Positions 18,755-39,191 of a stretch of 39,348 nt of DNA are shown one piece after another. The stretch spans positions 1 through 39,348 of the forward strand of contig JAGAAY010000019.1 in assembly GCA_017615065.1 (NCBI GenBank), in the 5' to 3' direction. Every line of letters starts with the position of its first letter. Position 1 is the stretch's first letter. A model generated the notes under the pieces. The model did no database searches and was not told where the DNA came from. It was given only the letters and a program-made list of their open reading frames with translations. This DNA comes from Bacteroidales bacterium. Lineage in GTDB: Bacteria; Bacteroidota; Bacteroidia; Bacteroidales; UBA932. The translations under genes were made by a program, and so were the position numbers.

Positions 18755-18860
18755 CTGGCGGCCAACCGCCTGATAATCAACACGTTGATGGCTTGCCGGT
18801 GCAAAAAAATTTGCACCGGCAAACACGTAAGAAACTGAAACACAAATAGTTAAGCGCCAG
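18755..18860. repeat. 106-bp palindromic intergenic element, copy A
   Basis: An imperfect palindrome with ends CTGGCGGC and GCGCCAG, a 34-bp core at 18791-18824 (TTGCCGGTGCAAA / TTTGCACCGGCAA stem, AAAA loop) and 36-base arms. It lies between the aspartokinase-like gene and the UvrA2-type gene, both plus strand. The same element recurs at 21271, 29811 and 32776. Confidence 0.85.
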
Positions 18861-18863
18861 GTA

Positions 18864-21269
18864 ATGGACAGTATAAAGATACGCGGAGCGAGGGAGAACA
18901 ACCTCAAGGGGGTGTCGCTGGACATTCCCAAGTACAAGGTAACGGTTTTCACGGGCGTTTCGGGCTCCGGGAAGAGTTCGCTGGTGCTGGACACCATCGC
19001 CGCGAAGTCCCGCAGGGAGCTGAACGACACGTTCCCCACGTTTGTGCAACAGTATCTACCAAAGTACGGCAGGCCGCATGTGGACAGCATCGAGGGGCTG
19101 CCCATCGCCATCGTCATCGACCAGAAGAAGCCGCAGCAGAATTCCCGCTCCACCGTTGGCACTTATACCGATATCTACGCGCTGATGCGACTGCTTTTCT
19201 CGCGCGTGGGCAAGCCGTTCGTGGGCTATTCCGATACTTTCAGCTTCAACCATCCCGCCGGAAGCTGCCCAAGGTGCTCCGGTCTGGGCGAAATCCGCGA
19301 GCTGGACATCCATAAGCTTGTCGATTTTGACAAGAGCCTAAACGACGAAGACACAATACATTACATCGCCTTTGGAAAGGGCGGGTGGCGATGGATCCGC
19401 TATGCGCACAGCGGGCTTTTCGACCTGGACAAGAAGATTAAGGACTACTCGCCGGAGGAGCTTGATCTTTTCCTGAACAGCCCCCAGATCCGCCTGAAAA
19501 ACCCGCCGTCCAACTGGCCCAAAACTGCTAAGTATGAGGGACTTATCCCCCGAATGTACCGTAGCATCATCAACTCCGAGGAAGGTTTGCTCCACAGCGC
19601 CGTTCTGAACCCGATGCTCCGGATGGGCGTGTGCCCGGATTGCGGCGGCACGCGACTGAACGAAAAGGCCCGGAGCTGCAAAATCGACGGTCTTTCCATT
19701 GCCGATGTGTGCTCAATGTCGATTTCCCGCCTTCGGGTTTGGGTCGATGGGCTGGCCGATCCCCTGGCGGCCGATCTGAAATCGGCCATCGGCGCGCGTC
19801 TGGCCGCGCTGGAAGAAATCGGCCTGGGATACCTGAGCCTGGATCGCGGTGTGGGAACTCTGAGTGGCGGCGAGGCGCAGCGATGCAAGATTGCGAAGTA
19901 CATCAATTCCTCGCTGTCCGATGTGCTGTATATCCTTGACGAGCCCAGCGTGGGCCTGCACAACCGCGACATCGAGCTGATGAAACGCTCTGTCCTGAAG
20001 CTGCGCGACGCCGGGAACACGGTGTTGCTTGTGGAACACCATCGGGAATTGATCAGTATTGCCGATTGGGTGGTGGACCTGGGCCCCGGCCCCGGTGCAG
20101 AAGGCGGCCGCATTATCTTCGAAGGCACGTACCCCGAGCTTCTGAAAAGCTCCACCGACACGGGCCGCTTCCTCGGAGCTTCGTTGCCGTTTAAAGAGCA
20201 CGTTAGAAAAAGTGTTACTGACACGGCGTTGGAAAAAAGTTTTTCTGACTCCGCGGACGAAAACTTTTCTAGTCTAAAAAATGACGTCGAAAAGTTTTGT
20301 CCGACTCCGTTATCGAAAAACTTTTTCCCCTTACGCGGAGCAAGTTTGCATAACTTGCAAAACATCGATGTAGACATTCCGCTGGGCGTTTTCGGGGTTG
20401 TGGCCGGTGTGGCCGGCAGCGGCAAGAGCTCGCTGATGGAGTGCTTCCGCAATGCGTACGGGCGTGACGACATAGTGTACATCAGCCAGAAGAGCATCGG
20501 TGTGAGCCTGCGCTCCACTCCCGCTACCTATATGGATGTGGCGGGGGATATCCGCAAGGCGTTCGCCAAGGCGCACAAGCTTAAGGAGGACAACTTCACA
20601 TTCAACGGGAAGGGTGGCTGTCCGGTGTGCGGCGGCAAGGGTGTGATAGTGTCCGAGATGGCCTTCATGGACTCCATCGAAACGGTCTGCGAAGCTTGCG
20701 GCGGCCTCCGCTACGCCCCCGAAGTGTTAGAGTATAAGATCTCTCCGCGCGCTTCGCTTGGTCGAGATGACAGTGTTGTCATTTCGAGCGGAGCCGGAGG
20801 CGGAGTCGAGAAATCTCTGAATATAGCACAGGTGATGGATCTGTCGGTGCGGCGGGCGTCGGAGTTTTTCGCGGGAACGGTTATCGAGCAGAAGCTTAAG
20901 CCGCTCATTGACGTGGGGCTACAGTATCTGCACCTGAACCAGGCGCTATCGACACTCAGCGGAGGGGAGCTGCAGCGGCTCAAGCTGGCGTCATACCTGG
21001 GCGAGGAGGGAAAGATTTTCATTATCGACGAGCCTACGGACGGCCTGCACACCAAGGATGTGCGGCACATACTGCGGCTTTTCGACTCTCTCGTGGACCG
21101 TGGCAACACCGTGTGGCTCATCGAGCATAACACGGACGTGATTCGCAGCGCGGATTACGTGATTGAGCTCGGTCCCGGCGCCGGCGAGAACGGTGGCCGC
21201 ATCATCTACTGCGGCCCTCCCTCGGAAATGCCGCAAAACCCCGCTTCCGTCTCTGGCCCGTATTTGTAG
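18864..21269 (+). CDS. uvrA: UvrA2-type ABC ATPase (UvrA paralog without UvrB-binding domain)
   Basis: An 801-residue UvrA-family ABC ATPase. First half: Walker A GVSGSGKSSL at 31-40, NSRSTVGTYTDIY, LSGGEAQR and the ILDEPSVGLH Walker B. Second half: GVAGSGKSSL, LSGGELQR, FIIDEPTDGLH. Zinc-module cysteines are CPRC, CPDC, CPVC and CEAC. Canonical UvrA is about 940 residues; here VGKPFVGYSDTFSFNHPAGSCPRC joins the ATPase start directly to the zinc region, so the UvrB-binding domain is absent, as in UvrA2 proteins linked to tolerance of DNA-damaging or intercalating compounds. Two insertions are encoded by repeats: residues about 448-489 (AT-rich, 20204-20330) and about 625-652 (20737-20818). 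The ATG lies three bases after repeat copy A. Confidence 0.88.
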   Translation: MDSIKIRGARENNLKGVSLDIPKYKVTVFTGVSGSGKSSLVLDTIAAKSRRELNDTFPTFVQQYLPKYGRPHVDSIEGLPIAIVIDQKKPQQNSRSTVGTYTDIYALMRLLFSRVGKPFVGYSDTFSFNHPAGSCPRCSGLGEIRELDIHKLVDFDKSLNDEDTIHYIAFGKGGWRWIRYAHSGLFDLDKKIKDYSPEELDLFLNSPQIRLKNPPSNWPKTAKYEGLIPRMYRSIINSEEGLLHSAVLNPMLRMGVCPDCGGTRLNEKARSCKIDGLSIADVCSMSISRLRVWVDGLADPLAADLKSAIGARLAALEEIGLGYLSLDRGVGTLSGGEAQRCKIAKYINSSLSDVLYILDEPSVGLHNRDIELMKRSVLKLRDAGNTVLLVEHHRELISIADWVVDLGPGPGAEGGRIIFEGTYPELLKSSTDTGRFLGASLPFKEHVRKSVTDTALEKSFSDSADENFSSLKNDVEKFCPTPLSKNFFPLRGASLHNLQNIDVDIPLGVFGVVAGVAGSGKSSLMECFRNAYGRDDIVYISQKSIGVSLRSTPATYMDVAGDIRKAFAKAHKLKEDNFTFNGKGGCPVCGGKGVIVSEMAFMDSIETVCEACGGLRYAPEVLEYKISPRASLGRDDSVVISSGAGGGVEKSLNIAQVMDLSVRRASEFFAGTVIEQKLKPLIDVGLQYLHLNQALSTLSGGELQRLKLASYLGEEGKIFIIDEPTDGLHTKDVRHILRLFDSLVDRGNTVWLIEHNTDVIRSADYVIELGPGAGENGGRIIYCGPPSEMPQNPASVSGPYL
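20204..20330. repeat. AT-rich duplicated dyad repeat inside the UvrA2-type gene
   Basis: Two related units of about 42 bases, each with GAAAA-xx-TTTTC dyads flanking GACTCCG, encode the linker between the two ABC halves (EKSFSDSADENF and EKFCPTPLSKNF). Composition differs sharply from the surrounding GC-rich gene. Confidence 0.6.
20737..20818. repeat. In-frame palindromic repeat inside the UvrA2-type gene (copy 2 of 6)
   Basis: Two inverted halves meet here: AGATCTCTCCGCGCG...GGTCGAGATGACA and TGTCATTTCGAGCGGAGCC...GTCGAGAAATCTC. The encoded peptide LGRDDSVVISSGAGGGVEKS matches that of the mutL copy, so both are inserted in the same frame and orientation relative to the gene. Confidence 0.8.
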
Positions 21270-21270
21270 T

Positions 21271-21376
21271 CTGGCGGACAACACGTTGATACACTGTAAG
21301 ATACGTGTTTGCCGGTGCAAAAATTTTTGCACCGGCAAACCATTAACACGCTGATTGACAGACAGATAGCCGCCAG
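21271..21376. repeat. 106-bp palindromic intergenic element, copy B
   Basis: Ends CTGGCGG and GCCGCCAG; the 34-bp core at 21307-21340 is a perfect palindrome (GTTTGCCGGTGCAAAAA and its complement). It fills the gap between convergent genes almost exactly: one base after the upstream TAG and two bases before the stop of the flavoprotein gene. Confidence 0.88.
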
Positions 21377-21378
21377 CG

Positions 21379-24300
21379 CTATTTGAACGCACTCTCGTCC
21401 AGGCCGTTGCCGCCAATGGCGAGCTCGCGGAAGAAGGCGGGAACGGGACGCCCCATGAGCACATCCACGTACAGTTTGGCGATGTACTGCGAGAGCATGA
21501 AGCCATGGCCGCGCATGCCGCAGAACAGGCCCAGCGACGGATCCACGATGTAGCGTGGCTCCGTGTAGTAGCCCGCCCAGGTGGCCTGGAAGCTGGTGCC
21601 GCGCAGACGCGGGATCCACTCGCAGAACACCTCCGCGGCAATCTCCAGGAACTCGCGCGAATTCACGCGAAGGTCCTTACCCGCCTCGGCCGAGTCGCAT
21701 GCAGGCGAAGCGCAGCCGATAATCTGGCCGGTGGAAGCGAGCTGCTGCCCGTACACCGCGGAAAAGCCCTTGTAGTGACGGCGGTCGATTAGCATGTCCA
21801 GCGAATCGCCATCAGGCCCCATAAGCGGCAGCCTCTTGGTGATAAACGCCTGATGCCTAACCGCATACAGCCCCGTCTTAATGCCCAGCATCGACGCAAA
21901 CTTCTCCGCCCCGGCGCCCATCGCATTAACGAAAATGCCGGTCTTGTAGCGACGGTACCGCCCGTCCGGCAGCTTCACCGTAGCGTAATAAACGCCGTCC
22001 TGCAAAGCCACATCCACGAGCTCCGTATCCTCCAGAACTTCACCGCCAAGGCCGATGCCGATGCGCCTCACCGTGTCGATGGTCTTGCCCGGCGACGCCT
22101 GCCAGCAATCGTTGGAAATCAGCGCGTGGGAATACAAATCGAGATTGGGATTAAGGTAGGGCGATATATACTTGGGGAAGTCCTTCCTGTCGATCATGAA
22201 AGCGTCCGACCATGCCCTGGAAGCATCCAAACTGCGATAAGTTGCCTCATCGTGCACGAAATTGACGTAACGCGTCATCTTAAGGTCTATGTCGCGCTTA
22301 CCCTGCAGCTCGCGGAAAATCTCCAGGTTGCCACGGGCGATCTCCGCCAGCGCAGGTACCGAGAACGCGGGCCGTCCGCCGGCGATGCATCGCCACGAAC
22401 TGCCGTGGTCGTTGTTCACCAGCACGGGCTTAAGCCCCTCCTCCGCCAGATAGCGGAACGTGGCGGAACCCGCCATGCCGCCTCCGGCGACCAGCGCGCC
22501 CACCTCAACCACCGAGGCTTCGGTTTTCTCGGCCGCAGTGATAAGGGAAGATTTCTCGACTCCGCCCTGCGGGCTCCGCTCGAAATGACAAGGGGGCACC
22601 AGCCCGCCTATCTCCACGAGGTTCGCCATGGGGCCGCGGGGCGTAAAGTCGCCCGTGACCTCGATGCCGTTGGCGCGGAGGATCTGCTTCGCGCGCGGCA
22701 GGCAGCGGGAGCCGCGGCACGGGCCCATGCCCAGCCGCGAAATGTGCTTGAGCTCCTGCGCAGTGATGCTCTTGCGCCCCTGAAGCAGCTCCAGCAGGCT
22801 TGCAAGCGACACATCCTCGCAGTGGCACACGAAAGTATCGGCCCCGTCAGACGCACATGGCGTGAGCACCAGCTCCGACGGATACTTGTCCACGGGGATG
22901 AACCCGCGGGCATCCGTGAGCCCGTTGGCGCCGATCCACGACACCGCTTTCACAACGGCCACATTGGTCTTGTTGGGCTTGCGGACAATCCGCTCTATCT
23001 CGCCTGTACCCACCTTGGCGCCGTTGTCATCGACAAGGAATACCTCCTTGGTGGCCGGCTCGTCGAACTCGTACGGGAAATACACCAGCCCGCGCGAAGG
23101 ATTGTAACCGAAAATGGCCAGTCCGGGGCACTGCGACACGCATTCCATACAGCCGATGCACTTGTCGTAATCTATAACCGGCGTCACCGACGTGGAACTC
23201 TTGGTAATAGCCCCCTGCCGGCATGCGAACGAGCATGGATTGCAGGCGAACCCGTACAGGCAGTCCGCCACCACAAACGGCTTCACGCGCGTGGCATCCG
23301 GCATGCGCGGCTGCTCCAGAACCCGCACCGGGCGCTGCTGGGAGTCGATATACTCCTTGCTGATAGCCAGATAGCGGTTGTAATCCGTCCTCAGCCCCAG
23401 GTCCTGCATAACCTCAAGAGCGCACTGGCGGCCCCTGAGGACTGCCGATGTACCCTCGCCGATCCTCACTGCATCGCCAACACCGTGGCACGCACGTCCA
23501 AAAACGCGCGCACCCTTGCGCAGAAGCTGGCTGTCCGGCAGCAGACCCGTGCAGATATTGATACAGTCGATGCCGTCCAGACGCACCTCGGTGCCCGGAA
23601 TCGGCTTGAAATTCTCGCACTTGGCGATGATGGCTCCCACGACCCCGCTTCTATCGGCATTAGGAATTGCCTCCACCAGCGTATAGCCGGTGAGAATCGG
23701 AATCCCCAGCCTGCGCACTCGGTTGGCCTGCACCGGGAAACCGCCCTCGTGGGGCATCGCCTCGATGATGGCCTTCACGCTCGCGCCCGCCTGCATCGCC
23801 TGATAAGAAGTGAGATAGCCGATGTTGCCGGCTCCCACCGTGAGGATATTCTTGCCCAGCAGCGTGAACTCCGTGTTCATCATGCGCTGCACAACCGCGG
23901 CGGTGTACACGCCCGGCAGATCGTCGTTCTTGAACGGCGGCATGAACGGCAGCGCACCTGCGGCCACCACCAGCACATCGGCATCGACATAGAATATCTC
24001 CTGCGTCTTGATATTCTTCACCGCGAGACGGCGTCCCTCCAGGATATCCCACACTACGGAATTGAGCATAATGCCCTCCTGGTCCACGCCAGCCAGAGTG
24101 GATGCAATGTCGAATCCGCGCATTCCGCCCAGCTTCTTCTCCTTTTCGAAGAAGAAGAACTGATGCGTCTGCATGCGGAACTGTCCGCCCACCGCGGCAT
24201 TATTGTCGATGACGAGGTTGTCCACCCCCGCCTTCCGCAACTCCTCTCGCACGGCAAGCCCCGCCGGGCCCGCACCCACGATAGCGACGGTGGTGCGATA

Positions 24301-24645
24301 AATACGAGCGGACGAGGAGGCGGCTGTGTTGACGGGGGCCTCTTGTGGGGGTAAAGTCGCCTCCTCAATCCGTTTAACTTCCTTGACTCCATCGACCTTC
24401 GTGATGCAAATCCTGCGCACATGCCCGTCCACGAGCATTTCACAGGCGCCGCACTTGCCGATGCCGCACTCCATCGAGCGCGGACGGTCCTTCAAACTGT
24501 GGTGATGAACGCGAAGGCCCGCCTGATGCAGCGCAGCGGCAATCGTCTGCCCCTTCTGCCCCGCCACACGCGTGCCTTCATAATCGAAATACCACAAATC
24601 CTCCTCCGGAACCTCCAGAATCGGATGATTCGATATCTTATACAT
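21379..24645 (-). CDS. Multi-cofactor FAD/iron-sulfur oxidoreductase, probable one-chain proline/amino-acid dehydrogenase
   Basis: A 1088-residue fusion. Domains in order: 2Fe-2S ferredoxin-like (C60, C65, C68, C80); FAD/NAD disulfide-reductase-type domain with GAGPAG at 124-129 and a second Rossmann motif GAGNIG at 271-276; a cysteine-rich 4Fe-4S region (C462, C468, C471, C475 and C496, C499, C502, C506); a BFD-type 2Fe-2S domain (C607, C609, C643, C648); and a D-amino-acid-oxidase/sarcosine-oxidase-type FAD domain (GGGMAG at 721-726 to the end). Separate subunits of this kind form archaeal dye-linked L-proline dehydrogenase and HcnABC/SoxAB-like enzymes. With P5C dehydrogenase immediately upstream, proline or hydroxyproline oxidation is the best guess. 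A palindromic repeat (residues 686-700) sits at the junction before the last domain. Confidence 0.85.
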   Translation of the reverse strand: MYKISNHPILEVPEEDLWYFDYEGTRVAGQKGQTIAAALHQAGLRVHHHSLKDRPRSMECGIGKCGACEMLVDGHVRRICITKVDGVKEVKRIEEATLPPQEAPVNTAASSSARIYRTTVAIVGAGPAGLAVREELRKAGVDNLVIDNNAAVGGQFRMQTHQFFFFEKEKKLGGMRGFDIASTLAGVDQEGIMLNSVVWDILEGRRLAVKNIKTQEIFYVDADVLVVAAGALPFMPPFKNDDLPGVYTAAVVQRMMNTEFTLLGKNILTVGAGNIGYLTSYQAMQAGASVKAIIEAMPHEGGFPVQANRVRRLGIPILTGYTLVEAIPNADRSGVVGAIIAKCENFKPIPGTEVRLDGIDCINICTGLLPDSQLLRKGARVFGRACHGVGDAVRIGEGTSAVLRGRQCALEVMQDLGLRTDYNRYLAISKEYIDSQQRPVRVLEQPRMPDATRVKPFVVADCLYGFACNPCSFACRQGAITKSSTSVTPVIDYDKCIGCMECVSQCPGLAIFGYNPSRGLVYFPYEFDEPATKEVFLVDDNGAKVGTGEIERIVRKPNKTNVAVVKAVSWIGANGLTDARGFIPVDKYPSELVLTPCASDGADTFVCHCEDVSLASLLELLQGRKSITAQELKHISRLGMGPCRGSRCLPRAKQILRANGIEVTGDFTPRGPMANLVEIGGLVPPCHFERSPQGGVEKSSLITAAEKTEASVVEVGALVAGGGMAGSATFRYLAEEGLKPVLVNNDHGSSWRCIAGGRPAFSVPALAEIARGNLEIFRELQGKRDIDLKMTRYVNFVHDEATYRSLDASRAWSDAFMIDRKDFPKYISPYLNPNLDLYSHALISNDCWQASPGKTIDTVRRIGIGLGGEVLEDTELVDVALQDGVYYATVKLPDGRYRRYKTGIFVNAMGAGAEKFASMLGIKTGLYAVRHQAFITKRLPLMGPDGDSLDMLIDRRHYKGFSAVYGQQLASTGQIIGCASPACDSAEAGKDLRVNSREFLEIAAEVFCEWIPRLRGTSFQATWAGYYTEPRYIVDPSLGLFCGMRGHGFMLSQYIAKLYVDVLMGRPVPAFFRELAIGGNGLDESAFK
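22549..22590. repeat. In-frame palindromic repeat inside the flavoprotein gene (copy 3 of 6)
   Basis: A 42-base copy (AGATTTCTCGACTCCGCC ... CGCTCGAAATGACA) encodes CHFERSPQGGVEKSS, a different frame from the mutL and UvrA2 copies. It falls between the BFD and oxidase domains. Confidence 0.8.
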
Positions 24646-24674
24646 TCAGTTCGTCTGGTTTTTGGCGACAAGAA

Positions 24675-24821
24675 GACGATTGGCAGTGTCCGGGGGCTTG
24701 TCCACCCCCGGACAAGTATAGGGGGAGGGGCCCGTTGGATACAAGTTCTCGTTTACGAGGACGCGGTAGACAATGGGGGGGGCCGAAGCGTAGCGGAGTC
24801 CCCCGGACACTGTCAATCGTC
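24675..24821. repeat. Inverted-repeat element with competing arms between pruA and the flavoprotein gene
   Basis: Arms 24675-24696 and 24800-24821 match as inverted repeats at 21 of 22 positions. A third copy of the end word, CCCCCGGAC at 24705-24713, can also pair with the left arm. The element fills most of the 191-base gap. On the minus-strand transcript two GTCCGGGGG segments therefore compete for one CCCCCGGAC. No T-run follows, so it is not a standard terminator. A short open frame crossing it looks spurious. Confidence 0.65.
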
Positions 24822-24836
24822 TTCCAGACAAAAACC

Positions 24837-26462
24837 CTATTTCATATAAGTGTAACGATAGTCGGTGGGCGAAATCAGAGTCTCTTTAATCACTCTGGGG
24901 ATAATCCAGCGGATGAGGTTGAACTCGCCGCCGGCTTTGTCGTTGGTGCCGGAGGCACGGGCGCCGCCGAAGGGCTGGTTGCCCACAACCGCGCCGGTGG
25001 GTTTGTCGTTGATGTAGAAGTTGCCCGCGGCATACCTCAGCGCGTCGGTGATCTTCTCCACCGCAAGGCGGTCCTGGCCGAACACTGCGCCGGTGAGGCC
25101 ATACGGCGAAGTCTCGTCGCAGAGCTTCACGGCCTCATCGACCTTATCGTCATCGTATGGATATACAGTGAGCACGGGGCCGAAGATCTCCTCTTCCATA
25201 CTCTTGAAATGAGGATCCGTGGTCTCGATCACGGTAGGCTCCACGAAGTAGCCCACGCTCTTATCCCTCTTGCCGCCCAGGACGATTTTGGCGTCCGGCG
25301 ACTCCTCGGCATAGGTGAGATACCCGTTGATATTGTCCCACGAGGCCTCGTCGATAACCGCGTTGATGAAGCACGAATGGTCTCGCACATCGCCCATCTT
25401 CACCTCGCCGGCGTACTTCTTCATAATCTCGAGAACCGACGGCCACAGGCTCTTGGGCACATACATGCGCGATGCCGCCGAGCACTTCTGGCCCTGGAAC
25501 TCGAACGCGCCGCAGAATGCCGCCGTTGCCACCGCCTTAGCGCAGGCCGATGGATGCACGAAAATGAAATCCTTGCCGCCGGTTTCGCCAACCAGACGGG
25601 GATAGCTCACGTACTTGCCCAGATTCTCGCCCGCCTGCCTCCAGAGGCTGTTGAACGTGCCGGTGCTGCCGGTGAAATGAATGCCGGAGAACCACTTGCT
25701 GGAAGTTGCAACCTTGCCGATGAGCGCGCCGCTGCCGGGCAGGAAATTAATCACGCCGTCGGGCAGGCCGGCCTCCTTGTAAAGCTTCATCAGATAGTAA
25801 TTGCTCAGTGTCGATGTCGTTGACGGCTTCCACAGGGCCACATTGCCCATGAGCACCGGCGTCATGCACAGATTCGATGCGATGGAAGTGAAATTGAACG
25901 GAGTAACCGCCAGCACGAAGCCCTCCAGGGGCCGATATTCCGTGTGGTTGATGTTCATATACCCGTCCTTGGGCTGCATTGCATAGATCTTGGACGCATA
26001 ATGCACGTTGTAGCGGAAGAAGTCGATGGTTTCGCAGGCACTGTCGATCTCCGCCTGATAGATGTTCTTGCTCTGGCCAAGCATGCAGGCCGCATTCATG
26101 ATGGGCCGATATTTGGTTGCCAGCAGTTCCGCCATTTTCATGACGATGGCGGCGCGGGTTGTCCAGGGAGTCCTGCTCCACACCTTGTGGGCCTCCATGG
26201 CCGCGTCGATTGCCATCTGCACTTCCTTCTCGCTCACCTTGTGGAAGGTGGCCAGCACGTGCTTGTGGTCGTGCGGGCAAACCACCTTGCCGGTATTGCC
26301 GGTGCGGATTTCCTTACCGCCGATGATGATGGGGATGTCCAGGACTGTGTTCCACTGCCGGTCCAGCTCCGCATCCAGGGCGATGCGCTCCGGAGAGCCT
26401 TCCAGATAAGCTTTCACAGGCTCGTTGGCCGGAACAGGGAAATTGATGATTGCGTTGTTCAT
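24837..26462 (-). CDS. pruA: L-glutamate gamma-semialdehyde (1-pyrroline-5-carboxylate) dehydrogenase
   Basis: A 541-residue NAD-dependent aldehyde dehydrogenase of the P5C dehydrogenase type, which oxidises glutamate semialdehyde from proline or hydroxyproline/ornithine breakdown to glutamate. Motifs: VTPFNFTSIASNL cofactor region, FTGSTGTFN, ETGGKD with the catalytic Glu, FEFQGQKCSAASR with the catalytic Cys, and EIFGPVLTVYPYDD. Length fits the single-function enzyme rather than PutA. A promoter box TAAATTTG at 26507-26514 lies about 45 bases upstream in a bidirectional block shared with the B12 riboswitch. Downstream is the one-chain flavoprotein rather than a classical proline dehydrogenase, which suggests that protein performs the first oxidation step. 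Confidence 0.95.
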   Translation of the reverse strand: MNNAIINFPVPANEPVKAYLEGSPERIALDAELDRQWNTVLDIPIIIGGKEIRTGNTGKVVCPHDHKHVLATFHKVSEKEVQMAIDAAMEAHKVWSRTPWTTRAAIVMKMAELLATKYRPIMNAACMLGQSKNIYQAEIDSACETIDFFRYNVHYASKIYAMQPKDGYMNINHTEYRPLEGFVLAVTPFNFTSIASNLCMTPVLMGNVALWKPSTTSTLSNYYLMKLYKEAGLPDGVINFLPGSGALIGKVATSSKWFSGIHFTGSTGTFNSLWRQAGENLGKYVSYPRLVGETGGKDFIFVHPSACAKAVATAAFCGAFEFQGQKCSAASRMYVPKSLWPSVLEIMKKYAGEVKMGDVRDHSCFINAVIDEASWDNINGYLTYAEESPDAKIVLGGKRDKSVGYFVEPTVIETTDPHFKSMEEEIFGPVLTVYPYDDDKVDEAVKLCDETSPYGLTGAVFGQDRLAVEKITDALRYAAGNFYINDKPTGAVVGNQPFGGARASGTNDKAGGEFNLIRWIIPRVIKETLISPTDYRYTYMK

Positions 26463-26506
26463 AGTGGTTATTAATTATAATTGGTTTATACTCTAAGCAT
26501 ATCACG

Positions 26507-26534
26507 CAAATTTACCTTTTTTTATGTAAATTTG
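26507..26534. promoter_or_regulatory. Compact bidirectional promoter between pruA and the B12 uptake unit
   Basis: Outward-facing boxes TAAATTTG on the minus strand (26507-26514, pruA) and TAAATTTG on the plus strand (26527-26534, riboswitch) flank a 12-base T-rich centre. The spacing is identical to the block at 16890-16917. The two polymerases could not occupy it at once. Confidence 0.65.
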
Positions 26535-26544
26535 CAACGGATTA

Positions 26545-26690
26545 TGGCGCTTTTATGCATGAGGGGAAACCCGGTGGAAATCCGGGGCTGTGCCCGCAAC
26601 TGTAACCCTCCCGGAGGGGAGTCAGAATACCTGCCATAGTCAAGTTGGGCATGTGGACTCGGGGACAAGTCCTGGCCGAAACGTAAATTC
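26545..26690 (+). ncRNA. Cobalamin (B12) riboswitch controlling btuG-btuB
   Basis: The leader contains the family core GGGAAACCCGGTGGAAATCC, then GGCTGTGCCCGCAACTGTAA, and the B12-box-like GTCAGAATACCTGCC at about 26621-26635. A small hairpin (GGAC...GTCC, about 26655-26672) lies between the aptamer and the btuG start and may belong to the expression platform. Transcription should begin about 26538 from the TAAATTTG box. Boundaries are approximate. Confidence 0.92.
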
Positions 26691-26699
26691 TTATCTATC

Positions 26700-27872
26700 A
26701 TGAAAAAAGCATCATTGCTTTTGCTGGCGGCCGCATTGTGTCTGTGCGCCTGCCAACCATCTGGCGAGGAAAACGACAAAGACAAAACTCTTACAGGGGA
26801 AAAAGTACCGGTTGACGTCGACCTGCACGGCGTGAACAAGGTATTCCTGCTGAACGAAGGCCAGATGGGCTCCAACAACGCCACGCTGGATTTCCTGCGC
26901 CTGGCCGACGGCAACTACATCACCGGGGCCTTCAAAAAGATGAACCCCGATGAGGGCGGCGGCCTGGGAGACGTCGGCAACGACATCGCCATTAAAGGGA
27001 ACGAAGCCTGGATCGTAGTGAACAACTCCGGCATTGTAGAGGTGATATCGGCCCGGGATGAAACCCATATCGCCGCCATCCCCGTTCCCACACCAAGAAA
27101 CATCGCCTTCGACGACAAATACGCATACGTAAGCTCATGGGCGGGCGCTTATGTCACAGGCAGCTACGACGAAAGCTTCAATTACGTCATAACCGACTCC
27201 AAAAACCCAAAAGGACAGGTCTACCGAATCGACCTCAAGACAAAGAAGGTCGACGGTAGCGTCGAAGTCGGCTACCAGCCGGAAGGCCTCGCATACTATG
27301 AAGGTAAACTGTACGTAGCCAATTCGGGTGGCGTTTCCTGCCAGCTTCCTCCGGACTATGCATACGACAATACCGTGAGCGTCATAGACTGCGCAAGTTT
27401 CAAGGTGGAGCACACCATTGCGGTCGCCCCCAACCTAAAGAGCGTATTCGCATCCACCGACGGCCGCATCTACGTCACCACCATGGGCAACTACTATGAC
27501 GTACATTCCGGTCTCTACGTCATCGAAGGAACCAAAGCCGGGAAAGTGGCCGATTATGTGAGCGTCGCGTCAATCTGTGCCGATGTCGTCTTCTGCATCG
27601 GCGCCGAAAACGAATTTGACTGGAATAGCCCCGGCGAGTATTTCGCCTGGAGCTGCAAGGCAGGAAAGCAAACCTTCCATAATTTCAATTTCCAGGGCAT
27701 TGTAAAGCCTTACGGCCTGCTGGTCCCTGATTCTGCCGATTTTACTGCCGACGTATTCATTGCCGACGCCGGCGACTACTTCAATCCCGGGACTCTGCAC
27801 TACTATCGCGGCGTCGAGCACAAGTGGTCCGTGACCACCGGCGTCTGCCCCGCCCATTTCGCCATCTGGTGA
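26700..27872 (+). CDS. btuG: BtuG-like surface lipoprotein (B12-binding beta-propeller)
   Basis: A 390-residue lipoprotein (lipobox CACQ) with a YncE/DUF5074-like beta-propeller. The stretch VFLLNEGQMGSNNATLDF, GDVGNDIAIKGNEAWIVVNNSG and repeated blade patterns such as YVSSWAGAYV and YVANSGG match the Bacteroidetes BtuG type, which captures cobalamin at the cell surface with very high affinity and caps the BtuB transporter. It directly follows a cobalamin riboswitch and overlaps btuB by four bases (GTGA), so low B12 should switch on both together. The assignment rests on family resemblance plus riboswitch and btuB context. No BtuF/C/D transport genes are present here. Confidence 0.85.
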   Translation: MKKASLLLLAAALCLCACQPSGEENDKDKTLTGEKVPVDVDLHGVNKVFLLNEGQMGSNNATLDFLRLADGNYITGAFKKMNPDEGGGLGDVGNDIAIKGNEAWIVVNNSGIVEVISARDETHIAAIPVPTPRNIAFDDKYAYVSSWAGAYVTGSYDESFNYVITDSKNPKGQVYRIDLKTKKVDGSVEVGYQPEGLAYYEGKLYVANSGGVSCQLPPDYAYDNTVSVIDCASFKVEHTIAVAPNLKSVFASTDGRIYVTTMGNYYDVHSGLYVIEGTKAGKVADYVSVASICADVVFCIGAENEFDWNSPGEYFAWSCKAGKQTFHNFNFQGIVKPYGLLVPDSADFTADVFIADAGDYFNPGTLHYYRGVEHKWSVTTGVCPAHFAIW

Positions 27873-29809
27873 TCAGTATTGCACTTACCGCGCTGTTGTT
27901 GATTCAGCAACCCGACACCCTGGCGGGCGTTACCGTTACCGCCGACAGGGTGTTGCCGGTGCTGAAGCCCGTGGAGGAGGTGTTTTTGCCCGCGATCAAG
28001 GCGCCACCCGTTCAGGTGGCGGACGTGCTGCGGCGCTTCACGGGTATTCAGGTAAAGGACTACGGCGGCGCCGGCGGGCTCAAGACCGTGAACGTGCGCA
28101 GCCTGGGCAGCGAGCACGTGGGCATTTTCATGGACGGCATCCAGATCGACAACGCGCAGAACATGCAGGTGGATCTGGGCCGGTTCTCCACGGACGCTAT
28201 TGGCTCGGTGTCGCTGTACAACGGGAACAAGGCGCGGCAGCTGCAAACCGCAAAGGAGTATGCGGCCGGGGCGGCGGTGTATCTGGAGAGTTTCAGGCCC
28301 GTTGCCGATGGCGGCGTGGCGCGGCTGCGCGGCGGCTCGTTCGAGACGGTGCAAAGCTCGCTGCAGCTGGACAAGGTGTTTGGCCGCGTGGCAGTTCGCG
28401 CGGCCGCCGAGTACCTGTACAGCGGAGGCCGGTACAAGTTCCCGTATTATGATACAACTCTTGTGCGTGAGAACGGCGATATCCGCTCGCTGCGGCTGGA
28501 CGGACAGGTGTTCGGGACGGTTCGCGGCGGCGAGTGGCGCATGCGGCTCTACAGCTACGGCTCCGAGCGGGGCTATCCAGGGCCTGTGATCCGGCGCGCC
28601 GCGGGTTTCCCGTTCAGCGCGGAGCGTCAGGCCGATCAGGACGCCTTCGTCCAGGGTTCCTGGAGGCAGGACTGGACATCGGCATACAGTACGGCGATGC
28701 GATTCAAGCTTGCCGATAACTACACCCATTACAACACCCACGCGGAGAAGAATCCCATGACGCTGCCTTATGATATTCATTACAGGCAGCGGTCCGCATA
28801 CGTCTCCCTGGCCCAGTCGCTTGTTTTGAGCGGCCCTTGGTCCGTGGATTTGGCCACCGACCTGCAGTACAATACTTTGGACAGCGATGTGGGGCAGTTT
28901 GTGTCGCCATGCCGCACCACGTTCAACGGCGCCCTGGCCACGCGCTACGCCCTGGAGCGGCTGCGCCTCGGCGCCCACCTGGCCTGGCTTGGCGCCTGGG
29001 ACACCTACGGCTCTCGCGCCGGCGGCTTCACCCGCGAGAACTCCTTCCGCAGCGCCTGGATGCCCTCCCTGAGCGTCTCCTGGCTCCCAACATCGGCCCT
29101 CGAACTCTCCGCCTTCGCCAAACGCACCTACCGCCTCCCCACCTTCAACGACCTCTACTACGCCATCATGGGCAACTCCGCCCTCATCCCCGAGAGCGCC
29201 ACGCAGTACTGCCTGTCCCTCCGGGCTTCGCCCTTGTCTTCTCGACCAAGGCCCTCTGGGCCGCGCGGAGAGATCTCAACCGAATTCCTCGCCTCCGCCT
29301 ACTACAACCGCGTCGCCAACAAGATCGTCGCTATCCCCACCGCGTCGCAGTTCCGGTGGACCATGCTCAACATCGGCATAGCGGACATCATCGGCCTTGA
29401 CCTTAAGGCCTCCGGAAGCTATCAGGCCGATGATTTTGCCGCCTCGGCCGCACTCCGCTACACCTTCCAGCAGGCTCTGGACCACTCCGACCCGGAGAGC
29501 CGCACCTACGGCAACCAGATCCCCTACATCCCCCTCCACAGCGGCTCCATCGACTTTTCCCTCGCCTGGCGCTCCTGGAACTTCATCTGGAACACCCTCC
29601 TCACCGGCCACCGCTGGTCCCGCACCGCCAACATCCCCGACTACTACCTTCCCCCCTGGAGCACTACGGATGTCTCTCTGGCGTATACAAAAAAATTGTT
29701 GACGCTTAGCCTGGGCGTCAACAATCTCTTCAACCACCGCTACCAGATCATCCAGGGCTACCCCATGCCCGGCACCAACGCCTTCCTCACCGTTACTCTG
29801 CACTTCTAG
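27869..29809 (+). CDS. btuB: TonB-dependent vitamin B12 receptor BtuB
   Basis: A 646-residue TonB-dependent receptor. The start is taken as GTG at 27869, which overlaps the btuG stop (GTGA) and places a signal peptide (ISIALTALLLIQQ) directly at the N-terminus; a longer GTG start at 27824 would add unlikely charged residues. After a TonB-box-like LAGVTVTADR comes the plug (VADVLRRFTGIQVKDYGGAGGLKTVNVRSLG, GIFMDGIQIDN, IGSVSLYNG) and a 22-strand-type barrel ending in FLTVTLHF. With btuG and the riboswitch this is the cobalamin transporter. Residues about 456-470 derive from a palindromic repeat (29235-29277), probably within an external loop. The gene ends one base before repeat copy C. Confidence 0.88.
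   Translation: MISIALTALLLIQQPDTLAGVTVTADRVLPVLKPVEEVFLPAIKAPPVQVADVLRRFTGIQVKDYGGAGGLKTVNVRSLGSEHVGIFMDGIQIDNAQNMQVDLGRFSTDAIGSVSLYNGNKARQLQTAKEYAAGAAVYLESFRPVADGGVARLRGGSFETVQSSLQLDKVFGRVAVRAAAEYLYSGGRYKFPYYDTTLVRENGDIRSLRLDGQVFGTVRGGEWRMRLYSYGSERGYPGPVIRRAAGFPFSAERQADQDAFVQGSWRQDWTSAYSTAMRFKLADNYTHYNTHAEKNPMTLPYDIHYRQRSAYVSLAQSLVLSGPWSVDLATDLQYNTLDSDVGQFVSPCRTTFNGALATRYALERLRLGAHLAWLGAWDTYGSRAGGFTRENSFRSAWMPSLSVSWLPTSALELSAFAKRTYRLPTFNDLYYAIMGNSALIPESATQYCLSLRASPLSSRPRPSGPRGEISTEFLASAYYNRVANKIVAIPTASQFRWTMLNIGIADIIGLDLKASGSYQADDFAASAALRYTFQQALDHSDPESRTYGNQIPYIPLHSGSIDFSLAWRSWNFIWNTLLTGHRWSRTANIPDYYLPPWSTTDVSLAYTKKLLTLSLGVNNLFNHRYQIIQGYPMPGTNAFLTVTLHF
29235..29277. repeat. In-frame palindromic repeat inside btuB (copy 4 of 6)
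   Basis: This copy, TGTCTTCTCGACCAAGGCCC ... CGCGCGGAGAGATCTC, matches the right half of the mutL copy and is read in another frame (SSRPRPSGPRGEIS). Confidence 0.75.
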
Positions 29810-29810
29810 C

Positions 29811-29916
29811 CTGGCGGCTATGTGATTGTCCCACAGGGAATTACATGTTTCCCGGTGCAAAAAAATTTGCACCGGGAAACAATGAACTCACTGTAACTCA
29901 ATGTGTTAGCCGCCAG
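29811..29916. repeat. 106-bp palindromic intergenic element, copy C
   Basis: Ends CTGGCGGC and GCCGCCAG; 34-bp core at 29847-29880 with GTTTCCCGGTGCAAA / TTTGCACCGGGAAAC and an AAAA loop. It lies one base after the btuB stop and five bases before the end of the convergent polysaccharide gene. Confidence 0.88.
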
Positions 29917-29921
29917 AAGCC

Positions 29922-31904
29922 CTACGCCTCTTCAGGCTTCTGCGCGTCCAGTTTCTCGTACTTGGAGTTGTTGGAGATGTATTCCGGAACGATTTCCTTC
30001 ATTTTGCGCACGGTGGCCATGTCGTCGAACTGCTTGGAGATGTCAACCAGGGCGTCGATGTCGCGGGATACTTCATCGTAGTTGTATTCACGCACCTGCG
30101 CAATGCGGATTTTTTCGTGGAAAGTGGGTTTGGTGCCCTCAAGTTCGTTCAGCACCTCTTCGTACAGCTTTTCACCCTCGCGGAGACCGGTGAATTCAAT
30201 CTTCACGTCCTTGGCGTTGGAAAGCTGGATCATGCGCTTGGCAAGATCGGCAATCTTCACGGGCTGGCCCATGTCGAACACGAAGATTTCGCCGCCGTTA
30301 CCCTTTGTGCCCGCCTCCAGGACCAGCTTGCAGGCCTCCGGAATGAGCATGAAGTAACGGACGATGCGCTCGTCGGTAACCGTCACGGGGCCGCCGTTCT
30401 TGATCTGCTCGCGGAAGAGCGGAATCACCGAACCGTTGCTGCCCAGCACGTTGCCGAAACGGGTGGTGACGAACTGCGTGTACTCCTTTTTCTTGCCGGT
30501 GGCGCGATAGTTCTCAATGGCGTCCAGCTTGAGTTTGCGGTCCAGGCTCTGCACATAGATTTCGCAGATGCGCTTGGAGCAGCCCATTACATTGGTGGGA
30601 TTCACCGCCTTGTCCGTGGAAATCATCACGAACTTCTTCACGCCATACCTGGCACTCAGATCGGCAATTACCTTGGTGCCGTAAACGTTGTTCAGGATGG
30701 CCTCGCTGGGGTTGTCTTCCATCATCGGCACATGCTTGTAGGCCGCGGCGTGGAAAACATACTCGGGCCTGAACGAGCTGAAGATATACTCCATGCGCGT
30801 CCGGCGGCTTATGCTTGTGACCACCACTTCGCAGGGCACATCCGGGAAATCCTTGGCCATCATCAGGCGCACGTCGTGCTGGGGCGTTTCCGCCTGGTCG
30901 ATCAGCATCATCGACGCCGGCTTGAACTTCGCGATCTGCTTCACTATTTCAAGGCCGATGGAGCCTGCCGATCCGGTTACCAGGATGCGCTTCCCGGTGA
31001 GGATCTCGCCCACCGATTTCATATCGACCCTGATCTCGCTGCGCGGAAGAAGGTCCTCAACGCTCACTTCCCGGAGCTGGACGTCTTCGCTGGAATCATC
31101 TGTGAGCTCGCCGTTATGCACCTTTGCCTCTTCGGCCTCGTGCGACATGAAAATCTTACATCCCGCGCCGATGATGATATCCTGAATCTTCTGATTCTCA
31201 CGGAATTCCTTCACCCGCAGGGGACTCACCAGAACGCCCTGGACGCGCTCTTTCTTAATGACGTGGGCGATGTCGTCGTCCAGCGAATACACCCTCACGC
31301 CCAGGAGCTTCATGTTCTTGATCCTGTGCTCGTGGGTGATGAATCCAACCAGCTCGAACTGAGCCGGGCTCTGCGACCGGATATTCTTTGCCAGGCCGAT
31401 GCCGCCGGTGAGCGCACCGTAAATGAGCACCCTCATCGAGTCTGAATCCGTATTGGCGGCATCGTACATCAGCTTCACCAGAACCCTCATCGCCCACATG
31501 AGCAGCATCGCGAAAAGGAAGACAAACACCGTGGAGAGTGGACTGATGGCCGATATTATCTCAATGTTCAGCAGATCACTGCCGATGGCAACCACCAGCG
31601 CCAGCGCCATCGACACAAGATTCGCGTATCCGATCTTGAGAAGGTCAACGAAGCTGGAGAACCTGAGCACGCCGGAATAAGTGCGGAAAATCCGCGCCCC
31701 AACCCAGCTTAGCACGGCATACAGCGCCGCCGAGAAAAACAGCGCCCTCCTGTGCTCAAATGCGATTTGGGTATTGTTGGCGACCCAATAAACGAATATG
31801 GCCGACAGGAATACGATAAGCGTATCCGCCAGTAATATAACCCAGTACGGAAGCACCTTCTTGCTGAAGTACCAGGTGGTAATTTTCTTTATAACATTAC
31901 TCAT
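29922..31904 (-). CDS. Membrane-bound NDP-sugar 4,6-dehydratase (CapD/FlaA1-like polysaccharide biosynthesis protein)
   Basis: A 660-residue protein with about four N-terminal transmembrane helices (residues about 15-125), a CoA-binding-like Rossmann region (LIYGALTGGIGLAKNI) and a large C-terminal extended SDR domain: GSAGSIGLEIVKQI nucleotide motif, HAAAYKHVPMMEDNP, STDKAVNPTNVMGCSKR with the S-M-K type active site of UDP-GlcNAc 4,6-dehydratases, then GEKLYEEVL. Members make UDP-4-keto-6-deoxy sugars for capsule, LPS or glycan initiation. It belongs functionally with the GDP-mannose and epimerase genes at 33-35 kb, but it is transcribed alone, divergent from the AlkD-like gene, from a TATATTTG box at 31932-31939. 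Confidence 0.92.
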   Translation of the reverse strand: MSNVIKKITTWYFSKKVLPYWVILLADTLIVFLSAIFVYWVANNTQIAFEHRRALFFSAALYAVLSWVGARIFRTYSGVLRFSSFVDLLKIGYANLVSMALALVVAIGSDLLNIEIISAISPLSTVFVFLFAMLLMWAMRVLVKLMYDAANTDSDSMRVLIYGALTGGIGLAKNIRSQSPAQFELVGFITHEHRIKNMKLLGVRVYSLDDDIAHVIKKERVQGVLVSPLRVKEFRENQKIQDIIIGAGCKIFMSHEAEEAKVHNGELTDDSSEDVQLREVSVEDLLPRSEIRVDMKSVGEILTGKRILVTGSAGSIGLEIVKQIAKFKPASMMLIDQAETPQHDVRLMMAKDFPDVPCEVVVTSISRRTRMEYIFSSFRPEYVFHAAAYKHVPMMEDNPSEAILNNVYGTKVIADLSARYGVKKFVMISTDKAVNPTNVMGCSKRICEIYVQSLDRKLKLDAIENYRATGKKKEYTQFVTTRFGNVLGSNGSVIPLFREQIKNGGPVTVTDERIVRYFMLIPEACKLVLEAGTKGNGGEIFVFDMGQPVKIADLAKRMIQLSNAKDVKIEFTGLREGEKLYEEVLNELEGTKPTFHEKIRIAQVREYNYDEVSRDIDALVDISKQFDDMATVRKMKEIVPEYISNNSKYEKLDAQKPEEA

Positions 31905-31931
31905 GTTGCTGAGTGTTACCTATGTGGAATG

Positions 31932-31939
31932 CAAATATA
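31932..31939 (-). promoter_or_regulatory. -7 box upstream of the 4,6-dehydratase gene
   Basis: The minus strand reads TATATTTG, 27 bases before the ATG at 31904. Confidence 0.55.
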
Positions 31940-31966
31940 AACAAACCTTTTCACATTTCAAATTTG

Positions 31967-31974
31967 TATCTTTG
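31967..31974 (+). promoter_or_regulatory. -7 box upstream of the AlkD-like gene
   Basis: TATCTTTG matches TAnnTTTG and lies 21 bases before the ATG at 31996. It marks the shorter start as correct, since upstream in-frame codons fall outside the transcript. Confidence 0.6.
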
Positions 31975-31995
31975 CATTGTCAAACCCCCAACGCC

Positions 31996-32751
31996 ATGAA
32001 CATCCTTCTGGAACAGATGCTTTCACATGCCGACCCATCCCAGGTTCCCGGGCTGGCGCGTTTCTTCAAAACCGGCCCCGGACAGTATGGGGAAGGGGAT
32101 AAGTTCCTTGGAATAAAGGTGCCCGTAACCCGGGCTGTGGTGAAGGAATGCTGGCGGAAAGTGGGCACGCCGTGGGATGGTAAGGGCGGCGCATCTTGGG
32201 ATGGCCGTAGCGGCTCATTTGATTTCCCCGAGCTGGAAGAGTGCATATGCTCCGAGTATCACGAAGTGCGCCTTGCCGCCCTGCTCACTTTGGTGGAGAT
32301 CTTCAAACACAATCGTGTTGGCCGGCAGGCCTGCATCGATTTCTACCTCTCCCATACGCAGTTCATCAACAATTGGGATTTGGTCGATCTCAGCTGCTAC
32401 CCCCTCCTGGGCGAATGGCTCCTGGATTCTCCCGACCGTTCGCTCCTTTACAACCTTGCCCGGAACGGCCGCACCATCTGGGAGCAGCGCATCGGCATCG
32501 TTAGCACCATGACGTTTATAAGGCACGGGCAGCTCGATGACACCTTTGCCATCGCCGACATCCTCCTCCACCACCCCCACGACCTCATCCACAAAGCCGT
32601 CGGCTGGCTCCTCCGCGAAGCCGGCAAACGCAACAAACCAGCCCTGGAAGCGTATCTTGCTCCCCGCTACGCCGTCATGCCCCGCACCATGCTCCGCTAC
32701 GCAATCGAAAAGTTCCCCGAGGTGGAGCGCCAACGCTACCTCGCCCGCTAA
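31996..32751 (+). CDS. AlkD-like DNA alkylation repair protein
   Basis: A 251-residue HEAT-like-repeat protein of the AlkD/DNA-alkylation-repair family, whose founding members remove bulky or N3/N7-alkylated purines without base flipping. Helical repeats are visible across the protein (FFKTGPGQYGEGDKFLGIKVPVTRAVVKE; HNRVGRQACIDFYLSHTQFINNWDLVDLSCYPLLGEWL; DLIHKAVGWLLREAGKRNKPALEAYL), including the family-typical NNWDLVD and KAVGWLLRE motifs. A short duplicated peptide (WDGKGGASWDGRSGS) in the N-terminal half looks like a small local expansion. The ATG at 31996 is set by the promoter box just upstream. It is monocistronic and convergent with the GDP-mannose gene, separated by repeat copy D. 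Confidence 0.88.
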   Translation: MNILLEQMLSHADPSQVPGLARFFKTGPGQYGEGDKFLGIKVPVTRAVVKECWRKVGTPWDGKGGASWDGRSGSFDFPELEECICSEYHEVRLAALLTLVEIFKHNRVGRQACIDFYLSHTQFINNWDLVDLSCYPLLGEWLLDSPDRSLLYNLARNGRTIWEQRIGIVSTMTFIRHGQLDDTFAIADILLHHPHDLIHKAVGWLLREAGKRNKPALEAYLAPRYAVMPRTMLRYAIEKFPEVERQRYLAR

Positions 32752-32775
32752 ACCGCCGCCTGCTCCTCCAACACG

Positions 32776-32881
32776 CTGGCGGCTATGTGTTTGTGCCACA
32801 GCGAGATACATGTTTCCCGGTGCAAAAAAATTTGCACCGGGAAACAATGAAGTCGCTGAGTATCAGCGTGTTGCCCGCCAG
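32776..32881. repeat. 106-bp palindromic intergenic element, copy D
   Basis: Ends CTGGCGGC and CCGCCAG; core at 32812-32845 identical in type to copy C (GTTTCCCGGTGC / GCACCGGGAAAC). It lies between convergent genes, 24 bases after the AlkD-like stop and 24 bases before the end of the mannose gene. Confidence 0.88.
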
Positions 32882-39062: not shown

Positions 39063-39094
39063 CAAAGTTACAGGGCATTTCCGCCCCCTGCAAA
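39063..39094 (-). promoter_or_regulatory. Consensus -33/-7 promoter of the metallophosphoesterase gene
   Basis: On the minus strand TTTG (39091-39094) and TAACTTTG (39063-39070) are separated by 20 bases, a full match to the Bacteroidetes promoter consensus. Confidence 0.65.
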
Positions 39095-39119
39095 TCTTTG
39101 CAAGGTTTGCAAAGATTTG
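39091..39119. repeat. 29-bp palindrome 1 (operator candidate)
   Basis: CAAATCTTTGCAA, a three-base centre and TTGCAAAGATTTG form a near-perfect inverted repeat. Its left end is the -33 box of the metallophosphoesterase promoter. Confidence 0.55.
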
Positions 39120-39162
39120 CATATCTCGATTCTTTTTATATTACACTTATCTCCCTCATTTC

Positions 39163-39191
39163 CAAATTCTTGCAAACCTTGCAAAGATTTG
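39163..39191. repeat. 29-bp palindrome 2 (operator candidate)
   Basis: CAAATTCTTGCAA and TTGCAAAGATTTG with a three-base centre, a close copy of palindrome 1, placed 72 bp away. Its right end (TTTG, 39188-39191) is the -33 box of the plus-strand promoter (GAACTTTG, 39212-39219, spacing 20). Confidence 0.55.

What the first reader, a model, noticed from the sequence alone, without database searches (positions are those of the whole stretch)
18755..32881. Four copies of a 106-bp nested palindromic intergenic element with fixed 36-34-36 geometry
Copies at 18755-18860, 21271-21376, 29811-29916 and 32776-32881 are each exactly 106 bp, begin CTGGCGG, end CGCCAG (or close), and carry a 34-bp core hairpin at offset 36. 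The arms diverge but pair partly with each other, so the whole unit is one large imperfect palindrome. This resembles ERIC/REP/MITE-type elements in logic, but I know no described Bacteroidales family with this core (GGTGCAAA...TTTGCACC). No target duplication is evident.
Basis: partly seen in the sequence, partly recalled or inferred. Interest (0 to 1): 0.82.

Follow-up and report, generated by a model that had tools for sequence, protein, structure and literature searches.

The report
RAYT-linked 106-bp nested palindromes
These four copies belong to a family of short repeated DNA palindromes in uncultured gut Bacteroidales that is tied to transposase-like genes, most of which carry their own private version of the palindrome's centre and ends, which makes the family a natural test of how such enzymes and their repeats evolve together.

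Summary
All four copies are exactly 106 bp, and the exact core occurs 24 times in the window's 68%-complete genome, always in a 106-bp unit. About 42 related elements with several core versions are known there. The arms were misread: outer ends (positions 1-9) and core (37-50) covary as paired stems, while the arms (10-32) show no covariation and share a motif, TAA-N4-YTGA-N3-TCAR-N4-TTA. In relatives the length stays at 104-109 bp but core and ends differ. The elements flank genes of a RAYT-like HUH/Y1 transposase clade: 70 of 80 loci. The window's core type sits on both sides of one of five such genes in its genome. Two elements beside one RAYT share core (0.88 vs 0.47 identity) and ends (0.95 vs 0.47) far more than elements of different RAYTs. 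Best reading: REPIN-like non-autonomous elements of a RAYT system, with a private two-part address plus shared arms: a new variant of the known REP/RAYT kind. Against it: seven genomes carry elements without a strong RAYT hit, and more diverged RAYT-like genes lack elements. Movement is not shown.

The parts
18755..18860 (+). 106-bp nested palindrome, copy 1, between an aspartokinase-like gene (17457-18737, +) and a UvrA-like gene (18864-21269, +); strand is the orientation given by the alignment
18791..18824 (.). core hairpin of copy 1 (type GCCGGTGCAAA)
   Evidence: predicted single-strand fold keeps the core but not the outer stem in this copy
21271..21376 (-). 106-bp nested palindrome, copy 2, between the UvrA-like gene (+) and an FAD/2Fe-2S oxidoreductase gene (21379-24645, -), convergent
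21307..21340 (.). core hairpin of copy 2 (type GCCGGTGCAAA)
29811..29916 (-). 106-bp nested palindrome, copy 3, between a TonB-dependent receptor gene (27824-29809, +) and a polysaccharide biosynthesis gene (29922-31904, -), convergent
29847..29880 (.). core hairpin of copy 3 (type CCCGGTGCAAA)
32776..32881 (-). 106-bp nested palindrome, copy 4, between a DNA alkylation repair gene (31798-32751, +) and a nucleotidyl transferase gene (32906-33931, -), convergent
32812..32845 (.). core hairpin of copy 4 (type CCCGGTGCAAA)

Best explanation
The repeats are non-autonomous, REPIN-like palindromic elements of a RAYT (REP-associated HUH/Y1 tyrosine transposase) system in a genus of uncultured, probably ruminant, Bacteroidales. 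Each element is about 106 bp: a terminal stem of about 9 bp, two inverted arms of about 23 bp with a shared motif, and a central 34-bp hairpin. Most RAYT genes of one clade lie between or beside their own elements. Core and terminal stem are private to that RAYT; the arms are common to all. The window's copies are dispersed members of the population whose RAYT lies on contig C80 of the same genome. Inferred mechanism: the HUH domain recognises the core hairpin in single-stranded DNA and cuts at the element ends (mostly G-T or C-T), as described for TnpA_REP, while the arms are bound by the clade's long C-terminal region, holding both ends at a fixed spacing. Shown: linkage, private core and ends, covariation, fixed length. 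Inferred: recognition, cutting, movement, and the role of the C-terminal region.
For: An element lies within 500 bp of the RAYT in 70 of 80 loci (41 of 74 loci with both flanks long enough have one on both sides; 0 hits in 494 kb of the same loci shuffled) and in 34 of 39 strong-hit RAYT loci of the G genomes (the two sets overlap in part). In 43 loci with elements on both sides the pair shares core (0.882 vs 0.474 between different RAYTs) and ends (0.947 vs 0.474) much more than arms (0.646 vs 0.554); the own partner is the best or tied core match in 34 of 43. RAYTs 80% or more identical have core similarity 0.94 (26 pairs), those at 40-50% 0.48 (1460 pairs). The window's core type flanks the C80 RAYT on both sides, 1 bp behind its stop codon and about 155 bp before its start. 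In genomes that have RAYT-flanking elements, 41 of 56 dispersed elements match their own genome's RAYT elements best (16 of 26 without G000). Elements occur in 21 of 22 same-genus genomes with a strong RAYT hit and in 7 of 15 without (Fisher p 0.001). Y1_Tnp matched in 48 of 48 (E up to 1, best 1.7e-7); both His of the HUH motif and the Tyr are invariant in 39 of 39. Covariation: 21 of 21 pairs change on both sides; positions 1-9 753 paired vs 413 expected, 37-50 1321 vs 660, 10-32 1263 vs 1266.
Against: Seven of 28 element-bearing genomes of the genus have no strong RAYT hit; G030, listed as 97% complete, has at least 32 elements (a capped count of 64 strand hits) and no RAYT by two searches. 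In 15 of 56 cases dispersed elements do not match the resident RAYT best, for example 0 of 3 in G003 and 0 of 2 in G024. More diverged RAYT-like genes of the genus have almost no elements: 1 of 15 loci and 0 of 5 weak hits. Ten of 80 loci show no element. No empty site was found and there is no target duplication. The usual REP foot GT[AG]G is not conserved. Matches to the NCBI RAYT model are below its cut-off for the two proteins whose score is shown. The finder itself rewards pairing at 1-7 and 37-50 and was trained on elements found by a covariance model; unscored positions 8, 9 and 36 exceed expectation too, by less.
Confidence: 0.85

Rival explanations
1. The elements now serve mainly as host gene-end modules (for example barriers at the 3' ends of convergent transcripts), the RAYT link being ancestral or merely how they arose. 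This can be true together with the best explanation.
For: In G000, 20 of 24 convergent gaps of the loci examined hold an element, against 14 of 87 tandem and 0 of 22 divergent gaps (Fisher p 3e-11 for convergent), and 25 of 34 elements lie within 10 bp of a stop codon. G030 also favours convergent gaps (7 of 8, against 10 of 33 others) and keeps a large population without a detected RAYT.
Against: The loci were chosen because they hold elements, and the gene caller is simple. Closeness to stop codons is not seen in G030 (1 of 19 within 20 bp) or G005 (1 of 8). Terminator-like sites in the region are as frequent as in shuffles (14 vs 13.6); one weak one lies in an arm of the copy at 32776. Loss from promoters by selection would give the same pattern.
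Confidence: 0.2
2. A structured RNA, for example a bidirectional 3'-UTR element, with the RAYT link incidental.
For: Core and end stems covary strongly and single-strand folds are far more stable than shuffles (z -5.6 to -10.1 in five folds).
Against: No Rfam match at the elements. Core and ends are nearly identical within a RAYT's family and differ between RAYTs, which an RNA structure alone does not require. The arms, the most conserved part across RAYTs, do not pair. In copy 1 the predicted fold lacks the outer stem.
Confidence: 0.05
3. A classical MITE moved by a DDE transposase, or a recombination site of the integron attC kind.
For: Inverted ends, dispersal between genes and fixed length.
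Against: No target duplication in 24 G000 and 25 G030 copies. The linked protein is of the Y1/HUH type. Copies lie between ordinary genes in several arrangements rather than in a cassette array. No search for DDE transposase genes with these ends was made.
Confidence: 0.03

Closest known systems
REP / REPIN with RAYT (TnpA_REP), REPtrons; PMC8266576 (abstract, sections 3 and 29 read), PMC6006769 (passages and section 12 read)
   Same: Single-copy HUH/Y1 gene flanked by palindromic repeats, dispersed intergenic copies, and a specific repeat family for each enzyme.
   Different: Classical REPs are 20-50 nt with a GT[AG]G foot; REPINs are two REPs in inverted orientation. Here the unit is a fixed 104-108 bp with a central hairpin, non-pairing motif arms and a private end stem; GT[AG]G is not conserved.
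TnpA_REP subclass 2.6 (Bertels group 5), Bacteroidetes; PMC6006769 (passages and section 12 read)
   Same: Bacteroidetes genes flanked by atypical secondary structures without the GT[AG]G consensus, with copies elsewhere in the genome.
   Different: Published: NH[LIV]H, WQ, YIH[QN]NP, median 179 aa. Here: mostly DHxH, mostly no WQ/WE, Y-x-x-NN without YIH[QN]NP, 294-357 aa. RAYT-like genes in other genera of the order look closer to 2.6 and 10 of 29 have simple palindromes nearby.
TIRYT / TIRtrons; PMC3733652 (passages and section 16 read)
   Same: RAYT genes flanked by long inverted repeats, some self-complementary ('double palindromic'), some forming moderately abundant families.
   Different: A shared motif GGGGWSAS was described for some; it was not scanned for here. 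A fixed three-part unit of 106 bp was not described in the text read; the figures are not held.
IS200/IS605 (PMC6006769 passages)
   Same: Y1/HUH chemistry, hairpins beside the gene, no target duplication.
   Different: IS200 Y motif is Y[IV]ENQ; here Y-x-x-NN. The RAYTs here differ strongly within a genome (37-48% identity to P0001), so they are not multicopy insertion sequences.

Membership tests
REP/RAYT (REPtron) | HUH/Y1 gene of the TnpA_REP kind | tested here: met
   Y1_Tnp above cut-off for P0001 and for the first A6 member, matched in 48 of 48 at E up to 1; His, His and Tyr invariant in 39 of 39. The NCBI RAYT model is matched by 38 of 39 at E up to 0.01, below cut-off where the score is shown
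REP/RAYT (REPtron) | gene flanked by its own palindromic repeats, copies dispersed between genes | tested here: met
   70 of 80 and 34 of 39 loci; private core and ends; G000 copies at gene ends
REP/RAYT (REPtron) | GT[AG]G at the foot of a 20-50 nt hairpin | tested here: not met
   ends mostly GT (157 of 226) or CT (23 of 226), but positions 3 and 4 hold 0.19 and 0.35 bits; the core hairpin lies 36 bp inside
REP/RAYT (REPtron) | strand-specific cleavage of single-stranded repeat by the RAYT | not testable with these tools
   needs biochemistry
TnpA_REP subclass 2.6 | NH[LIV]H, WQ, YIH[QN]NP, median 179 aa | tested here: not met
   A6: DHxH 48 of 48, W[QE] between the motifs in 4 of 48; A4: 24 DHxH, 12 NHxH, 3 THLH, and YIH[QN]NP in 0 of 39, 294-357 aa. 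The window's own C80 RAYT has NHTH and YTFNNS
TnpA_REP subclass 2.6 | Bacteroidetes, atypical flanking structures without conserved GT[AG]G, copies in the genome | tested here: met
TIRYT / TIRtron | long inverted repeats with motif GGGGWSAS, HTH C-terminus (subclass 2.1) | tested here: inconclusive
   inverted flanking elements present; no Pfam family other than Y1_Tnp in more than 2 of 48; GGGGWSAS not scanned
classical MITE | terminal inverted repeats with target-site duplication | tested here: not met
   inverted ends yes, duplication no
IS200/IS605 insertion sequence | Y motif Y[IV]ENQ, near-identical transposase copies | tested here: not met
   Y-x-x-NN in 39 of 39; G000 paralogues 37-48% identical to P0001
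ERIC | enterobacterial consensus sequence | not tested
   no ERIC sequence was compared

The most novel reading that the evidence does not exclude
A two-lock RAYT system: the HUH domain reads a private hairpin and a private end stem, a new C-terminal domain reads shared duplex arms, and together they measure a 106-bp unit that is moved as one symmetric block. In some hosts the population has been taken over as gene-end modules, and in at least one (G030) it has outlived its enzyme.
Probability: 0.3. Interest if true: 0.78.

Novelty: new variant of a known kind. Interest (0 to 1): 0.6.

Why it matters
How RAYTs spread their repeats is unresolved (PMC8266576, sections 3 and 29). Here one genus holds dozens of RAYT-repeat pairs in which two parts of the repeat change with the enzyme while the arm motif and the length stay fixed. 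That natural series makes the recognition question testable by swapping cores, ends and arms between pairs, and it offers genomes with and without the enzyme for asking whether such repeats serve their host.

Tried and rejected
Cloverleaf with arm hairpins: proposed, not supported by covariation. Arms as one long hairpin: not supported. Intrinsic terminators: no excess. Known RNA family: none at the elements. Phage, plasmid or viral carriage: exact core not in viral contigs; one copy gave no match in plasmids or phages. Exact core in 60 relatives: none; this looked species-specific until a covariance model found the genus-wide family. Empty sites by synteny: none found; at G000:C47 the place next to a ~90-bp repeat holds another element with a different core, not an empty site. 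Phage and defence-protein libraries: nothing of note. A PDB profile search gave weak transposase hits (2xo6, 2xm3, 2xma, E 0.004) and weak 14-3-3 hits to the C-terminal part (E 0.02-0.03), which I take as chance. Gene calling in G030 and G005 with the G000 codon table gave very long gaps and was redone with their own tables.

Rows left out of counts: one search leaves out four RAYT loci with strong hits, two partial genes with an element (L139, L140) and two genes without (L109, L111), five weak hits without elements (L117-L121), and duplicate fetches. A3 is a sample of 45 elements. A4 (39 proteins) leaves out duplicates and partial genes; A6 holds 48 of the 80 RAYT loci, themselves the best 80 of 158. 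The 80 loci and the G genomes overlap in part (for example contigs of the same lengths in G034 and JAEEHS), and some RAYTs are near-identical (26 pairs at 80% or more), so they are not all independent.

Not in print: no paper describing a 106-bp RAYT-linked element in Bacteroidales was seen in the searches (open-licence PMC texts only; of some searches only the top 10-15 titles were listed).
Full report
Observation. The four copies exist as described. The exact core occurs 24 times in the window's genome G000 (1.70 Mb, 114 contigs, 68% complete) and a reversed-pattern control 0 times; all 24 units are 106 bp with a 4-base spacer. The exact core is absent from 36 same-genus and 24 same-order genomes.

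Anatomy. A covariance model of the 24 copies found 8 more places in G000 and matches in 21 of 36 same-genus genomes at E up to 0.1, with one weak match (E 0.09) among 24 others. At most 64 candidates per genome were scored, so counts are lower bounds. In the relatives the length stays near 106, but core and ends are different sequences that remain largely self-complementary. On a sample of 45 elements 21 of 21 pairs of the outer stem and core have two-sided changes, and 91.9% of cells pair against 55.0% in shuffles. On 113 RAYT-flanking elements pairing beyond expectation is found at positions 1-9 and about 33-50 and is nil for 10-32; pairing inside an arm is below expectation. The arms instead share conserved positions, 9-11 TAA, 16-19 YTGA, 23-26 TCAR, 31-33 TTA, symmetric about position 21. 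In G000 the two arms of a copy tend to be of two types, giving each element an orientation (optimum 116.3 bits against a mean of 114.6, sd 0.3, highest 115.0, in 12 random re-pairings).

The enzyme. A relaxed arm pattern gave four further elements in G000 (the one on C6 is weak, E 0.002), one of them at the 3' end of a 323-aa ORF that matches Y1_Tnp above cut-off and the REP-associated tyrosine transposase model below cut-off. G000 has five full-length members, the other four 37-48% identical to this one, and one further weak hit. The one on contig C80 carries window-type elements on both sides. Counting also the flanks of the RAYTs on C99, C84 and C5 (the C5 element is weak) and one on C47, about 42 elements are known in G000. 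By protein search 26 of 36 same-genus genomes and 0 of 24 others match at E up to 1e-5, 21 of the 26 strongly. The RAYT-like proteins in 29 such loci are 184-265 aa; 17 show NHFH, 6 NHVH, 2 NHYH, and 20 a YIHxNP motif. Ten of the 29 have a simple palindrome (stem of 13 or more) within about 200 bp of the gene; the 29 loci together hold 32 such palindromes against 1 after shuffling. These are about the size of the core here; the finder saw one weak arm-bearing candidate among them (L226).

Linkage. A scan of genome contigs with 12 RAYTs gave 158 relatives, of which the best 80 were kept. Titles are uncultured Bacteroidales or Bacteroidia, many naming ruminants, and one is a bin called Fibrobacter succinogenes (L220, no element). 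70 of 80 carry an element within 500 bp; of 74 with both flanks longer than 400 bp, 41 have one on both sides, 24 on one and 9 on none; shuffled loci gave 0 hits. Lengths of the 113 elements: 106 (80), 105 (23), 107 (4), 104 (3), 108 (3); median gap 108 bp upstream and 15 bp downstream. The two elements of a RAYT share core and ends, and the arms only slightly more than strangers do; the own partner is the best or tied core match in 34 of 43. RAYT similarity and core similarity are weakly but significantly correlated overall (Mantel rho 0.18, p 0.001, n 70), the link being strong only between close RAYTs. The rule is specific to this clade: of 15 loci with more diverged RAYT-like hits in genomes without a strong one, only 1 has an element, and of 5 further weak hits 0.

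Dispersed copies. With a multi-species model 27 of 36 same-genus genomes and 0 of 24 others have elements at E up to 0.001. Dispersed elements match their own genome's RAYT elements best in 41 of 56 (16 of 26 without G000). Seven genomes have elements but no strong RAYT hit; some are incomplete, but G016 (98%) and G030 (97%) are not. G030 has a large population and no RAYT by two searches, so the enzyme was lost there, is missing from the assembly, or is too diverged.

Setting. In 35 G000 elements, 20 lie between convergent and 12 between tandem genes, none between divergent genes, 1 at a contig edge and 2 overlap doubtful ORFs; 25 of 34 lie within 10 bp of a stop codon. The sample was chosen for elements and the gene caller is simple. 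G030 shows the convergent preference (7 of 8 gaps against 10 of 33) but not the closeness to stop codons, and the small G005 sample shows neither. The base just outside the element is never T in 48 G000 flanks, is G in 34 of 50 in G030 and C in 16 of 20 in G005, and there is no target duplication. This looks like a boundary preference of an insertion reaction, but that is inference.

Mechanism. TnpA_REP enzymes cut single-stranded repeats beside a hairpin, and enzyme and repeat co-evolve (PMC8266576, abstract and sections 3 and 29 read). By analogy the core hairpin is the likely single-strand recognition element, and the G-T or C-T end the likely cut. The arms, conserved in sequence without pairing, are more like a protein site than a stem; the clade's extra C-terminal residues, without a shared Pfam match, are the candidate reader. 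The last step is a guess.

Novelty. RAYT-repeat systems are known, and unusual structures beside Bacteroidetes RAYTs were noted in 2018 (PMC6006769). The three-part fixed-length unit, the private core-plus-ends rule and this long RAYT clade were not seen in the papers searched. I file it as a new variant of a known kind.

Noticed in passing
G030 (for example L030, L053, L063-L075): A genome listed as 97% complete with at least 32 elements and no RAYT found: an orphan population.
   Followed up: partly
L058:1900-2034 and 16 other G000 places: Another interspersed repeat of about 90 bp in G000, often next to variant-core elements; at C47 (L301) a different-core element lies 8 bases on from the shared stretch, at a place 11 bp off from that in L058.
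   Followed up: partly
window 15321-15367 and 20770-20816; 15368-15443 and 29235-29277: Inverted copies 96% alike over 47 bp and a repeat family around TGTCATCTCGACCAAGGC, lying inside long ORFs: other repeats unrelated to this finding.
   Followed up: no
window 39080-39202: Paired imperfect palindromes around CAAATCTTTGCAAGGTTTGCAAAGATTTG near the window end; they look like a simple REP-type repeat.
   Followed up: no
window 26528-26652: Cobalamin riboswitch (Rfam RF00174) upstream of genes that include a TonB-dependent receptor.
   Followed up: no
genomes G001, G011, G012, G014, G016, G022, G027, G029, G035: More diverged RAYT-like genes in the same genus, for which no 106-bp elements were found nearby in the loci scanned; what they act on is unknown.
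   Followed up: partly
L220: A RAYT of this clade in a bin named Fibrobacter succinogenes, probably a misbinned contig or a transfer.
   Followed up: no
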